The notes below the pieces were generated by a model that was not told the origin of the DNA, made no database searches, and worked only from the letters and a program-made list of their open reading frames with translations. Below are positions 42,814 through 46,831 of a stretch of 64,000 bases of DNA, in pieces. Numbering within the stretch: the first letter of the stretch is position 1; each line of letters starts with the position of its first letter. Position numbers and translations under genes: made by a program. This DNA is from Candidatus Gastranaerophilales bacterium (GTDB lineage Bacteria; Cyanobacteriota; Vampirovibrionia; Gastranaerophilales; Gastranaerophilaceae), in assembly GCA_944324945.1 (NCBI GenBank), contig CALUYE010000001.1:248001-312000 (forward strand), read 5' to 3'.

Positions 42814-44520
42814 ATGAGTAATGCGCTAATCAGTTTTTATCACAATCTTGAAGAACCCATTATAATCTACGATAAAAAAGCGGATATTTTGTATCATAAT
42901 TTATCGTTCGGTAAAATTTTTTCAAATTTCAACGAATCAACAGGCTATAAATCTCTTATAAAGCTGACTTATAAATTTTCTTATCAGATGTGTTTTATAC
43001 GCTCGGAAGATGTAAAGACGTATAACCCTATTATTTGTGCTCTTGAGAACGATTGTAATTTTTCTACTTTTGCAACTTATCAAAAAGACGAAAATGTTTT
43101 TTATTATTTTTTAATCAAAGCATTCAGTGTTAAAAAAAGGTATAGAATTGTTTACCTTTACGACATTACAAATGAATTAAGAACGGAAAAATTAAAAGAA
43201 GAAAACGAAAGATTAAGAATCCAAAATATTGAATTTGCTTCAACAAATTCTAAAGCGCAAAATCAGGCCGTCAAAATGGCGCTTTTAAACAGGATTTCAA
43301 TAAGCATCAGAAACGAGCTCGATATTAAAACTTTAATAGAAAAGTCTCTTAAAGAATTAAGCATTGTTTTTGGTGCCAATAAGAGCTATTTTGCGGAATT
43401 CAACAAAGAAGATTTTATAATCAAATACACATACCCTGATGTTTATGCTCCTCAGATAGGTGAAAAATTGATATATTCCAAAAAAATCACCGATGATTTG
43501 CATGCAAATATTTATTCGATTCAAGCCTGCATAAAAGAGCATGACGGTGCTTCAATTCCGCTTTTGAATTCAACAACGAGGATAATTATCCCGATAATTA
43601 ATAATGAACAATTATTTGGAATTGCCGTTATATTTACCCCCAAAAAAGAAATAACAGCACTTGAGCGCGAGCTTCTTGTCGGGATTTCTATGCAAATATC
43701 GTCTTCCGTTATTCAAGCAAGCCTGTTTCATCAGATTTCACAAAAAAAAGAAGAACTTGAAAGCGCAATAAAAGAGCTTAAAGAAACCCAGCTTCAATTA
43801 ATAAATTCCGAAAAAATGGCTTCCTTAGGTCAGCTTGTAGCTTCCGTTGCCCATGAAATAAACACCCCCTTAGGCGCAATTAGCGCAAATAATGAGATGA
43901 TGGCAAGCGTTTTTAATCATTTTGATGTTAGCACGCTTGATATTTTAAAAGAGATAAATTCAACAGACAAAGAAGCAATAAAAAGAATAACAAATATAGT
44001 CCAATCTCTGAAACGTTTTGTAAGGCTGGACGAAACAACCCAACAAGAAGCAAATATCAATCAAGAGCTTGATTTAACACTAAGTCTTATACATCACAAA
44101 ATAAAAAATAATTTTGAAATAATAAAGCAATACGACTCAATCCCTTATATAAATTGTTATCCCAATATGCTGAATCAAGTATTTTTGAATATTTTAATGA
44201 ATGCAATTCATTCGATTGAAGAAATAAAATCAAAAGACTCCTCCTATAAAGGTAAAATCAAACTAAAAACTTTTATTGAAGGTGAATTTTTAAGAATTTG
44301 TATTTTGGATAACGGAAAAGGAATAAGCCCTAAAGACAAAAAAAATATCTTTCAAGCAGGCTTTACGACAAAAAAGAAAGGACAGGGAACGGGCTTAGGG
44401 CTTGCAATTTGTAAAAAAATTATAGAAAAACACAAAGGAAAAATATCTTTTAAAAGCGGTACAATCGAAAACGAACCTGATTTTAAAACAGAATTTATAA
44501 TAGATATACCTCTTTTTTAA
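42814..44520 (+). CDS. Sensor histidine kinase with PAS-like and GAF domains
   Basis: A 568-residue cytosolic kinase. The N-terminus looks PAS-like (PIIIYDKKADILYHNLSFG), followed by a coiled coil, a GAF domain (about 160-310: LIEKSLKELSIVFGANKSYF; RIIIPIINNEQLFGIAVI), a second coiled coil, HisKA with His347 in SVAHEINTPLGAI and an HATPase domain (NILMNAIHSIEE, ILDNGKGIS, GTGLGLAICKKI). It senses an intracellular ligand and phosphorylates an unknown regulator. No response regulator adjoins; the coiled-coil protein upstream is co-transcribed. Confidence 0.88.
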   Translation: MSNALISFYHNLEEPIIIYDKKADILYHNLSFGKIFSNFNESTGYKSLIKLTYKFSYQMCFIRSEDVKTYNPIICALENDCNFSTFATYQKDENVFYYFLIKAFSVKKRYRIVYLYDITNELRTEKLKEENERLRIQNIEFASTNSKAQNQAVKMALLNRISISIRNELDIKTLIEKSLKELSIVFGANKSYFAEFNKEDFIIKYTYPDVYAPQIGEKLIYSKKITDDLHANIYSIQACIKEHDGASIPLLNSTTRIIIPIINNEQLFGIAVIFTPKKEITALERELLVGISMQISSSVIQASLFHQISQKKEELESAIKELKETQLQLINSEKMASLGQLVASVAHEINTPLGAISANNEMMASVFNHFDVSTLDILKEINSTDKEAIKRITNIVQSLKRFVRLDETTQQEANINQELDLTLSLIHHKIKNNFEIIKQYDSIPYINCYPNMLNQVFLNILMNAIHSIEEIKSKDSSYKGKIKLKTFIEGEFLRICILDNGKGISPKDKKNIFQAGFTTKKKGQGTGLGLAICKKIIEKHKGKISFKSGTIENEPDFKTEFIIDIPLF

Positions 44521-44553
44521 AAAACTTCTTGCAAGAATTGTTTTATCTGCTAT

Positions 44554-44559
44554 TATAAT
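44554..44559 (+). promoter_or_regulatory. -10 element of the tRNA-Arg locus
   Basis: TATAAT ends 5 nt before the duplicated tRNA 5' end at 44565 and about 140 nt before the intact tRNA. This is the expected place for the original tRNA promoter. Confidence 0.45.
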
Positions 44560-44564
44560 TCTAT

Positions 44565-44581
44565 GCTCTGGTAGCTCAGCT
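44565..44581 (+). repeat. Duplicated 5' end of tRNA-Arg
   Basis: GCTCTGGTAGCTCAGCT matches the first 17 nt of the intact tRNA (44699-44715) at 16 of 17 positions. The sequence then departs into the repeat element, so this is a fragment and not a working tRNA. Confidence 0.8.
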
Positions 44582-44583
44582 AA

Positions 44584-44676
44584 GTGCGTGAGCCGGTGCG
44601 AAAATCGATGAGGCGACGAGCCTCAACGATGAAGCAGTCGATAGGCGACGTGGAAATCTTTGATTTCCTCAGGAGC
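44584..44676 (+). repeat. Structured repeat element, copy B, inside the tRNA locus
   Basis: Contains GTGCGTGAGCCGG (44584-44596), a GAGGC-GACGA-GCCTC hairpin, CGATGA twice, GTCGATAGGCGACG (44637-44650), a GGAAATC-TTT-GATTTCC hairpin and AGGAGC (44671-44676). Same conserved blocks in the same order as copy A (25219-25369, minus strand), with the 14-mer identical. Non-coding. Confidence 0.6.
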
Positions 44677-44698
44677 GAAATAAAAATTAAATAATCAA

Positions 44699-44772
44699 GC
44701 CCTGGTAGCTCAGCTGGATAGAGCAACTGCCTTCTAAGCAGTAGGTCATGCGTTCGAATCGCATCCAGGGTA
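44699..44772 (+). tRNA. tRNA-Arg (anticodon TCT)
   Basis: Complete cloverleaf: acceptor GCCCTGG/CCAGGGT (44699-44705 with 44765-44771, G-U at the first pair), D arm GCTC/GAGC, anticodon stem ACTGC/GCAGT with loop CTTCTAA and anticodon TCT at 44733-44735, T arm ATGCG-TTCGAAT-CGCAT. CCA is not encoded. It reads AGA codons, which are common in this genome. Confidence 0.95.
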
Positions 44773-44833: not shown

Positions 44834-46831
44834 TTAAGCGAAGAAGTCTTTAATTTTTTTTATCCAATCAGGAATGTATTTTTCTTGATTAGTTGTATTT
44901 TTTAATGTTTTTACATATTCATCAGCAAAACGTATTTTGTTTTCGCCTTGATTTTCTTTGAAGAATGTTTTTAAATCGAAATTTTTTAAGCTTTCATGGA
45001 AGTCTGTGTTGGATAATTTTTCTAAATCAATTTTTTCGTTTATTTGGTATTTTTCGTCCGTTGTTAAATTATGCATTGTTATTGCAAAAATTTGCGGATT
45101 AAGTGCATTTTCAATTGAAGTTGCATAATTATAGCAGTTTTTTAATGTTATTAACTCCGTTTTTCCTTCACCGTTGTTTGAATTTGAAAGCCTTCTTAAT
45201 TGCAGATTATGCTTTCCGTCCCCGATTTCGTCTGATGGTCTTTCAAAATCAGTATCAATTAAACAATATATTTTTCCTCTAAATTCGCTTGCTTCATATT
45301 GTATTGGAACCTGCAGGTATTTATATAATCTGATTACTTCTTTTTGTCCGCCTAAAGGCAGAATTCTTAAGTTTTTATTTTTAATTTCATCTGTAAACAG
45401 GTAATCGAAATATATTTTTTCGCTTATACCTTCACAGATGAGCCAATTATACGGTTTATCCTGTTTGATTGAATAAAAAATAGAATGTACAAGGTCATTC
45501 ATGCTTTTTAATTGAAAATCATGCGGAATTTTATTTTTATTTTCCTCCATGTCTTTTTTTACTGTTGTTTTGTAATCGTATAATTCGTATGTTTCAAAGT
45601 CTATTTTTTCTTCCGCTTCGTTTTTATTTAGAAAATGTCCTACACCCTCGCTAACTATTGGCAAAAAGCCGTACCAATGAGTTGTAATAAAAACCTGGCA
45701 ATTTTTTGATATCTCTTTCAGCTTCTCAAACTGCTCGAAACAAAGACCTGTATGTAAAGAATTTTCAGGCTCGTCAATACCTATTACCACATAGTTATCT
45801 CTTTCTTGTTTTTCAATCAAGAAGGCATATAATAAATCTATTAATGCTTGTCTTTTTTCGCCCGCGCTTAATTCGCTTGCTTTTTTTGCCAATTTTTTGT
45901 TGCTGCTGTTTCCTTTATTTAATACTCTTATTTTGAAATATACTTCCAGAATTTTTTCGAATAAATCAATACTTGTTAAATATTTTTTTGAAGTGTTGAC
46001 TGATTCATAGTAATATTGACCGTTTAATTTATTTTCAATTTCTTTTACAAAATCGTTTAATTTGTTATTAATTTTATCAATACTATTTTGATCAATCGCA
46101 TTTATAATCTCATTTTTTAAAGTTTTACCAAAGATTTTCTGCATGCTGTTTGTTTCAATTTTGGTGAAATTTTCCACATCAATTTCAACAGGAACATACA
46201 CGTATGAGTATGTTTTTTTAATTATTTCCAAAACGCTTTTAAATTTTTCGTGTATGTATGAGTTTACTGCCTCATCAACATCCGGATTTTCTTCGTTTCT
46301 TTCGTTAGTTTCTTTGATTTCGTTAACATCTTTTTGATATCCTATTTTAGCCAAGAAATATTCATTTTTTTGAAAGACTGGTATATAAATTCTTTTACCT
46401 GTTGTTTCGCCAAGTATTATTAAAAAATGGCTTTCTTTATTATGGCCGTCTTGTTCTAATTTATCACGTAATTTAAAGAAATTGTTTGCTATGGGTTTAA
46501 CACGTGAAGCGATTTCGTTTTTGCCAACTGTCCATAGAAAATTGCTTAACAGCTCAAATTCTTTTTTATTTTTAGTAATTTTGTCTTTTTCAATTAAAAA
46601 AATTGGTGCAAAGTATGGGAAATTATCTTTTGTGTATATGCCGTCTTTTTTTGCGCTTTTATTTATTGAATATTCGCGGTATCCGTTAAAGAATGAATCG
46701 AATGCCTCTATGATGGAACTTTTGCCGCTGCCGTTTTTGCCAAGGTAATTTATAAAATTGTAGTTACCGACAGGAACATAGTGCATGCCTTTGTATGTTT
46801 TAATATGTCTTAAAAAAAGTCCTATAATCAT
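44834..46831 (-). CDS. OLD-type ATPase with TOPRIM-like nuclease domain
   Basis: A 665-residue protein. The ABC/SMC-type ATPase has Walker A GKNGSGKSS (31-39), signature LSAGEKRQAL, Walker B VVIGIDEPENSLHTG and a switch His in FITTHWYGF, with a long helical insertion between. The C-terminal part has WLICEGISEKIYFDYL and IYCLIDTDFERP, the Glu and DxD of a TOPRIM fold. This is the layout of OLD-family nucleases, many of which act in anti-phage defence (P2 Old, GajA). No UvrD-type helicase partner follows, so it would be a stand-alone (class 1-like) OLD. Its place next to a disturbed tRNA gene fits a mobile defence locus. Confidence 0.82.
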   Translation of the reverse strand: MIIGLFLRHIKTYKGMHYVPVGNYNFINYLGKNGSGKSSIIEAFDSFFNGYREYSINKSAKKDGIYTKDNFPYFAPIFLIEKDKITKNKKEFELLSNFLWTVGKNEIASRVKPIANNFFKLRDKLEQDGHNKESHFLIILGETTGKRIYIPVFQKNEYFLAKIGYQKDVNEIKETNERNEENPDVDEAVNSYIHEKFKSVLEIIKKTYSYVYVPVEIDVENFTKIETNSMQKIFGKTLKNEIINAIDQNSIDKINNKLNDFVKEIENKLNGQYYYESVNTSKKYLTSIDLFEKILEVYFKIRVLNKGNSSNKKLAKKASELSAGEKRQALIDLLYAFLIEKQERDNYVVIGIDEPENSLHTGLCFEQFEKLKEISKNCQVFITTHWYGFLPIVSEGVGHFLNKNEAEEKIDFETYELYDYKTTVKKDMEENKNKIPHDFQLKSMNDLVHSIFYSIKQDKPYNWLICEGISEKIYFDYLFTDEIKNKNLRILPLGGQKEVIRLYKYLQVPIQYEASEFRGKIYCLIDTDFERPSDEIGDGKHNLQLRRLSNSNNGEGKTELITLKNCYNYATSIENALNPQIFAITMHNLTTDEKYQINEKIDLEKLSNTDFHESLKNFDLKTFFKENQGENKIRFADEYVKTLKNTTNQEKYIPDWIKKIKDFFA

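What the first reader, a model, noticed from the sequence alone, without database searches (positions are those of the whole stretch)
44565..44772. tRNA-Arg gene rebuilt around an inserted small element
The first 17 nt of tRNA-Arg occur twice, 134 nt apart with one mismatch. Only the second copy continues into an intact tRNA; the first runs into the structured repeat. The TATAAT box sits before the first copy. This is the footprint expected if an element of about 117 nt entered the tRNA 5' end and restored the gene. It also means the tRNA is transcribed as a long precursor, or from a new promoter.
Basis: partly seen in the sequence, partly recalled or inferred. Interest (0 to 1): 0.65.

Follow-up and report, generated by a model that had tools for sequence, protein, structure and literature searches.

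The report
Duplicated tRNA 5' end with insert
In a gut bacterium related to cyanobacteria, the start of a tRNA gene is copied in front of the real gene with a folded repeat in between, one case of a family-wide pattern that mirrors a known E. coli pattern at the other end of tRNA genes and whose function is unknown.

Summary
The first 17 nt of tRNA-Arg(UCU) recur 134 nt upstream with one mismatch; only the downstream copy is an intact tRNA, and the promoter precedes the first copy. It is not a lone event. Orthologous sites beside the same kinase-like gene are occupied in 12 of 24 Gastranaerophilales sites, short and empty in 10, and remnant-like in 2. Removing the 134 nt gives an empty-like site. 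The insert is a dispersed, structured ~95-nt repeat, but it is one of several different inserts. Many other tRNA genes across the family (Pro, Leu, Phe, Lys, Met, Asn, Arg) carry copies of their own first 10-20 (up to ~50) nt upstream, then a structured insert, then an rrn-type boxA-like motif, then the intact tRNA. Some inserts hold 9-18 nt antisense to the tRNA's own D-arm region. I read these as 5' tRNA-linked repeats: partial duplications of a tRNA 5' end, filled with palindromic repeats, transcribed as a long leader, gained and lost repeatedly. They mirror E. coli tRNA-linked repeats, which copy the 3' end. 'Element entered and restored the gene' is partly supported: recurrent gain or loss is shown, direction is not, and no enzyme was found. 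Function is unproven.

The parts
42814..44520 (+). histidine-kinase-like gene, conserved upstream neighbour used to find orthologous sites
   Evidence: ORF of 568 aa; 23 named relatives have it followed by tRNA-Arg(UCU) or by the unit at a contig end. The name 'histidine kinase' is my reading of the translation, not a family search.
44529..44534 (+). -35-like hexamer TTGCAA
   Evidence: TTGCA(A/T) conserved at this place in most orthologous sites
44551..44556 (+). -10-like hexamer TATTAT; transcription would start at about the first nt of the upstream copy (inferred)
   Evidence: same hexamer position in empty relatives
44565..44581 (+). upstream copy of tRNA-Arg nt 1-17 (one mismatch)
44582..44676 (+). 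dispersed structured repeat (called E2 here), ending in CAGGAGC
44604..44630 (+). first hairpin of E2; inner stem keeps pairing while its sequence changes between copies
   Evidence: fold; covariation
44652..44668 (+). second hairpin of E2 (GGAAATC TTT GATTTCC)
44680..44693 (+). boxA-like motif ATAAAAATTAAATA (11 of 14 to TTGAAAATTGAATA; weaker than in most relatives)
   Evidence: 2 of 200 shuffles as good; rrn leaders of two family members hold similar motifs
44699..44772 (+). intact tRNA-Arg(UCU), the only one found in the genome
44782..44808 (+). intrinsic-terminator-like hairpin

Best explanation
The locus is a '5' tRNA-linked repeat'. The original promoter now drives a copy of tRNA nt 1-17, then a structured palindromic repeat of the genus (E2), then a boxA-like leader, then the complete tRNA-Arg(UCU). 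Shown by sequence: the layout, its recurrence at many tRNA genes of the family with each gene's own 5' end, empty orthologous sites, and the tie to a boxA-like motif. Inferred: it starts as a partial tandem duplication of leader plus tRNA 5' part (copies of about nt 1-50 and T-arm-less copies are the least altered stage). The first copy is then filled or replaced by palindromic repeats. Units multiply and vanish by recombination between the head copies. Also inferred: the whole is transcribed as one precursor, boxA-type antitermination carries polymerase through the structured untranslated leader, and RNase P removes the leader at nt 1 of the intact tRNA.
For: Orthologous site: 12 of 24 occupied, 10 short empty, 2 longer without head copy; at least 4 forced changes, 6 by parsimony. 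42 distinct units at Arg, Leu, Pro, Phe, Asn, Lys and Met tRNAs in the loci held. Second set, tRNA-Pro(UGG) from the family: head copy in 16 of 26, shuffles 0 of 1300. BoxA-like motif: 12 of 12 occupied sites score 11-14 of 14 and 0 of 10 short empty sites exceed 9; over the pooled genes, 33 of 45 with a unit and 16 of 136 without reach 12 of 14, Fisher p 1.5e-14. Similar motifs lie 122-212 nt before 16S in two of two family genomes with a 16S gene held. Tandem identical or near-identical units in L014/L246 and L123. Pure 67-nt duplication of leader plus nt 1-50 in a cyanobacterium of another family, L309. T-arm-less first copies in L211-L216 and L251. Further repeats nested inside units at Leu and Pro (L181, L111).
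Against: The E2 repeat also sits far from tRNAs and is there often followed by a copy of the sequence to its left (24 of 52 sites with 10 nt or more, control 6 of 50), which looks like insertion with target duplication rather than filling of an old duplication. The window's own left leader shows no clear match to its right leader. The window's boxA-like motif is weak. No transcript data. The pooled counts are biased towards Arg(UCU) and towards loci found by similarity to the unit, and related sequences are not independent, so the Fisher p is only descriptive. Of 32 tRNA genes from 20 other cyanobacterial regions only L309 shows a comparable copy, so the feature is not general.
Confidence: 0.55

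Rival explanations
1. Insertion of a small mobile element into the tRNA D-loop with a long target duplication (leader plus first 17 nt), leaving an intact tRNA on the right: the first reader's reading.
For: E2 is dispersed (its right half 1 copy in G000, 11 in G024, 6 in G012). In L133/L235 an E2-type insert is flanked by a perfect 37-nt direct repeat of leader plus head. At the groEL 3' end a related insert is flanked by 15-17-nt repeats in two genomes (L064, L081). Removing the window's 134 nt gives an empty-like site.
Against: Flanking repeats vary from 10 to 45 nt, unlike a fixed target duplication. Many units at other tRNAs hold no E2. No RT or Y1 transposase in G000. The boxA-like leader right of the insert is not in the short empty alleles.
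Confidence: 0.25
2. The leader is a functional RNA switch: an antisense arm in the insert pairs with nt 10-30 of the tRNA itself and competes with tRNA folding, with boxA in the loop between them; the head copy upstream is a decoy or displacement strand.
For: Antisense runs of 11 nt or more to the gene's own 5' part in 16 of 181 leaders, against 5 of 3620 other-isotype pairings. Runs of 9 nt or more at -29 to -68 covering nt 5-30. 10 of 26 tRNA-Pro leaders have 9 nt or more, shuffles 1 of 520. In the eight leaders folded, chosen for their long arms, the lowest-energy fold of leader plus tRNA pairs the arm with the tRNA.
Against: The window's own unit has no such arm (6 nt). The D-stem is itself palindromic, so an inverted D-arm can be a by-product of how the duplications form. 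Minimum-energy folds ignore co-transcriptional order. Most units lack a long arm.
Confidence: 0.15
3. Chance match or assembly artefact.
For: Nearly all relatives compared are draft or metagenome assemblies, and arrays often end at contig ends (L014, L016, L246, L253).
Against: The window locus lies inside a 715,936-base contig. Independent assemblies from different projects share the layout. Statistics as above.
Confidence: 0.02

Closest known systems
tRNA-linked repeats (TLRs) of Escherichia coli
   Same: Repeats beside tRNA (or rRNA) genes that contain a short exact copy of the adjacent gene's end, one to five per locus (PMC8144298, passages read: 22 TLRs at ten loci, 18-19 bp of the gene's 3' end, no known function before that paper, which reports three rRNA-linked ones as transcribed and binding Hfq and CsrA). 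Relatives here also have copies of the last 12-22 nt downstream of tRNAs.
   Different: In the window the copied end is the 5' end and the unit lies upstream, between promoter and tRNA, with a boxA-like motif and a dispersed palindromic insert.
REPINs / RAYT-mobilised palindromic repeats, and small dispersed repeats of cyanobacteria
   Same: Short, structured, dispersed intergenic repeats (E2 has two hairpins and about 95 nt). PMC3116915 was seen in a search listing only; the comparison rests on recalled knowledge.
   Different: No Y1 transposase in 26 of 27 genomes of the genus; sits at tRNA 5' ends among other places; flanking repeats of 10-45 nt.
tRNA-targeting integrative elements (genomic islands)
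   Same: The gene is kept intact beside a partial copy of itself (recalled knowledge).
   Different: The insert is 117 nt, has no room for an integrase, and restores the 5' rather than the usual 3' end.
rRNA operon leaders with boxA antitermination
   Same: A structured untranslated leader with a boxA-like motif. The cyanobacterial rRNA-spacer boxA (GAACCTTGAAAA) and D4 (CTGCATA) are given in PMC8461337 (passages read).
   Different: Sits in front of single tRNA genes; antitermination not tested.

Membership tests
tRNA-linked repeat (TLR), E. [quoted passage not shown]
   The window's unit copies the 5' end; no tail copy downstream of this tRNA (L013).
tRNA-linked repeat (TLR), E. coli sense | one to several units at a locus | tested here: met
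   One unit in the window; two or more tandem units in L014, L016, L111, L123, L042.
transposable element / MITE | terminal inverted repeats | tested here: not met
   Ends of E2 copies (AATGCG... / ...CAGGAGC) are not inverted repeats of each other, by inspection of alignment A1.
transposable element / MITE | flanking target duplication of constant length | tested here: not met
   Direct repeats next to the right end range from 10 to 45 nt; some are plain tandem repeats.
transposable element / MITE | empty and filled orthologous sites | tested here: met
   10 short empty and 12 occupied of 24.
REPIN/RAYT | Y1 (RAYT) transposase in the genome | tested here: not met
   PF01797 in 1 of 27 genus genomes, not in G000.
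retroelement (target-primed insertion) | reverse transcriptase in the genome | tested here: not met
   PF00078 in 12 of 27 genus genomes, not in G000, G010, G012 or G014, which carry units. A past driver since lost is not excluded.
known structured RNA family (tRNA, T-box, riboswitch, ribozyme, intron) | covariance-model match to the unit | tested here: not met
   Rfam: only the tRNA at 44699-44772 over the gathering score; no match within the unit even at E up to 10.
boxA antitermination leader | motif shared with rRNA leaders of the same lineage | tested here: met
   Motif 11-13 of 14 found 122-212 nt before 16S in L310 and L311; 16S held in 2 of the 12 genomes asked, none in G000.
boxA antitermination leader | NusB/S10-dependent read-through | not testable with these tools
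   needs experiment

The most novel reading that the evidence does not exclude
In Gastranaerophilaceae-like bacteria many tRNA genes have evolved self-encoded riboregulatory leaders. A copy of the tRNA's own 5' end and an antisense arm against its D-arm region flank a structured hairpin, and an rrn-type boxA lies between arm and tRNA, so that folding or maturation of each tRNA is gated in cis by its own leader and coupled to antitermination. The window's unit would be a derived form in which a mobile palindrome replaced the arm.
Probability: 0.15. Interest if true: 0.85.

Novelty: new variant of a known kind. Interest (0 to 1): 0.6.

Why it matters
tRNA genes are usually thought of as having short, plain leaders. 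Here a whole bacterial family keeps rebuilding the front of its tRNA genes with copies of their own 5' ends, palindromes and boxA-like motifs, with repeated gain or loss at one and the same site. It gives the E. coli tRNA-linked repeats, described in 1978 and still largely unexplained, a 5' mirror image and dozens of natural replicates. It also makes two questions testable: how such repeats form, and whether leader RNA that can pair with the tRNA itself controls tRNA supply.

Tried and rejected
Known RNA family: Rfam at gathering and at E 10 gave nothing for the unit. Multi-copy element in the window's own genome: rejected, the 134-nt unit is single copy there. Full tandem tRNA gene with a decayed second half: by eye the window insert has no residual match to the tRNA 3' half. 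In other genera first copies of about nt 1-50 closed by an acceptor-like strand do exist, so a decayed duplicate remains part of the best explanation. Reverse-transcriptase or Y1-transposase driver: no match in the window's genome; Cas1-like or other transposases were not searched. Phage carrier: exact E2 pattern absent from viral contigs. Antisense arm as a mere lock for the upstream copy: doubtful, since in tRNA-Pro the arm covers nt 9-30 while the copy often ends at nt 11-15. rRNA boxA in the window's own genome: not testable, no 16S held. Literature: searches listed no report of duplicated tRNA 5' ends in this lineage. Only PMC8144298 and PMC8461337 were opened (passages), and the library lacks most subscription journals.

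Full report
What was checked. The window holds one tRNA gene, tRNA-Arg(UCU), at 44699-44772. Its first 17 nt recur at 44565-44581 with one mismatch, 134 nt upstream. A promoter-like pair, TTGCAA and TATTAT with a 16-nt spacer, ends at 44556, a few nt before the first copy. The stretch between the copies folds strongly. The first-stage observation is confirmed; only the exact -10 hexamer is better placed at 44551-44556.

Organism. Close relatives of the neighbouring kinase-like gene are mostly named Candidatus Gastranaerophilales. The window's contig is G000:C1, 715,936 bases.

Orthologous sites. The kinase search returned 33 loci. I examined 26 (L231-L256); the other seven are 21-33% identical hits in other bacteria and were not used. 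Three of the 26 (L244, L250, L255) have no tRNA after the kinase and were dropped. With the window this leaves 24 sites, two of them (L246, L253) cut by the contig end inside the array. Twelve are occupied: the window, L231, L233, L234, L235, L245, L246, L248, L251, L252, L253, L256. In L256 the head copy is decayed, but the unit is plain from its tandem repeat and an 18-nt antisense run. Ten are short, 45-77 nt from kinase stop to tRNA. Two (L240, L254) are longer without a head copy. L233 and L235 come from one assembly, and L233 and L234 have identical kinase genes. On a tree of the kinase gene the state changes 6 times by parsimony, and 4 changes are forced by well-supported branches; the direction cannot be told. 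Taking out the window's 134 nt leaves 47 nt, like an empty site, and 57-60 positions are identical to each of five empty relatives over alignments of 72-83 columns.

What fills the gap. The window's insert after the head copy is a repeat of about 95 nt (E2), beginning (A)ATGCG in most copies and ending CAGGAGC. It occurs dispersed in the genus, at tRNAs and elsewhere. With up to 3 mismatches its 33-nt right part is in 11 of 146 family genomes, in several copies only within the genus, and once in the window's genome. In 18 aligned copies the first hairpin keeps its pairs while its letters change: four adjacent inner pairs with two to four pair types and 4 to 12 of 18 sequences changed on both sides. 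Away from tRNAs, 24 of 52 right ends are followed within 6 nt by 10 nt or more copied from 40-320 nt upstream, against 6 of 50 for a control stretch 60 nt further. Some of these are plain tandem repeats, and a few of the 52 lie before a tRNA further off, so this only suggests insertion with target duplication.

The pattern is wider than E2. In loci held after, 42 distinct upstream units copy the gene's own first 10-20 nt at tRNAs for Arg, Leu, Pro, Phe, Asn, Lys and Met. All 38 tRNA genes of the window's genome were looked at: four (Arg-UCU, Pro-UGG, Pro-CGG, Asn-GUU) have such copies. In other genera the first copy of tRNA-Arg runs to about nt 50, lacks the T-arm and is closed by an acceptor-like strand; in L211 that closing strand matches the first copy and not the real tRNA (by eye). 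A second set, tRNA-Pro(UGG) from the family, has a head copy in 16 of 26 leaders (two loci with too little upstream DNA dropped; shuffles 0 of 1300), and 10 of 26 have an antisense run of 9 nt or more (shuffles 1 of 520). Those loci are the best-scoring matches among 88 genomes searched, not a random draw. Of 55 family tRNA-Arg(UCU) leaders held, 8 have a direct run of 11 nt or more, 4 an antisense run of 9 nt or more, and 14 a tail copy of 11 nt or more downstream; 20 of the regions behind these were chosen partly because a partial copy had shown up. Of 32 tRNA genes in 20 regions of cyanobacteria outside the family, one (L309) has a pure 67-nt tandem duplication of leader plus nt 1-50; the others have no upstream copy above 10 nt.

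Leader motif. TTGAAAATTGAATA or a close form lies 17-32 nt before the tRNA in all 12 occupied sites and in the two remnant-like sites, and in none of the ten short empty ones. The window's own form is in the weakest class, 11 of 14. Similar motifs precede 16S rRNA in the two family genomes where a 16S gene was held, and the cyanobacterial rRNA spacer has boxA GAACCTTGAAAA and D4 CTGCATA (PMC8461337, passages). I therefore call it boxA-like; antitermination itself is not shown.

Antisense arms. In many units outside the window the end of the insert is complementary to nt 5-30 of the gene's own tRNA for 9-18 nt. Minimum-energy folds of eight leaders joined to their tRNA, chosen for their long arms, pair the arm with the tRNA. 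In the window the arm is absent, and the two folds, separate or swapped, differ by only 1.4 kcal/mol. An inverted copy of the D-arm could also be a by-product, because the D-stem is palindromic.

Reading. I favour partial tandem duplication of a tRNA 5' part, later filled by palindromic repeats, carried as a long leader with a boxA-like motif, and gained and lost by recombination between the head copies. Direct insertion with a long target duplication is the main rival and may well be true for E2 itself. The nearest known thing is the E. coli tRNA-linked repeat, which copies the 3' end (PMC8144298, passages). The window's unit fails that definition because it copies the 5' end, so I file it as a new variant of that kind, not as a member. 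Driver enzyme and function remain open.

Noticed in passing
L029, L022, L015, L017, L019, L024, L126, L090 (downstream of tRNAs): Copies of the last 12-22 nt of the tRNA lie about 100-620 nt downstream, often with a further terminator-like hairpin: 3' tRNA-linked repeats in the same genus.
   Followed up: partly
L064, L081 (groEL 3' end): A structured repeat sits right after what looks like the groEL stop codon, flanked by 15-17-nt copies of the gene's last bases.
   Followed up: partly
L309 (cyanobacterium outside the family), upstream of tRNA-Arg(CCU): Exact 67-nt tandem duplication of leader plus tRNA nt 1-50 with no insert, in a single-contig genome.
   Followed up: partly
L195, L198, L200, L203, L204, L205, L206, L230: Another conserved leader of about 55 nt (GAGGGATTATACAGGTACCCC...CCCTCTGGATCC) directly before tRNA-Arg(UCU) in several other genera; different from the head-copy units.
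   Followed up: no
G012 and other genomes, tRNA genes at contig ends: Many tRNA genes lie within 100 nt of a contig end, probably because the repeats break short-read assembly; copy numbers of units are then underestimates.
   Followed up: no
44834-46831 (-): A 665-aa ORF with an apparent P-loop ATPase motif next to the tRNA on the opposite strand; possibly an OLD-like nuclease (by eye only).
   Followed up: no
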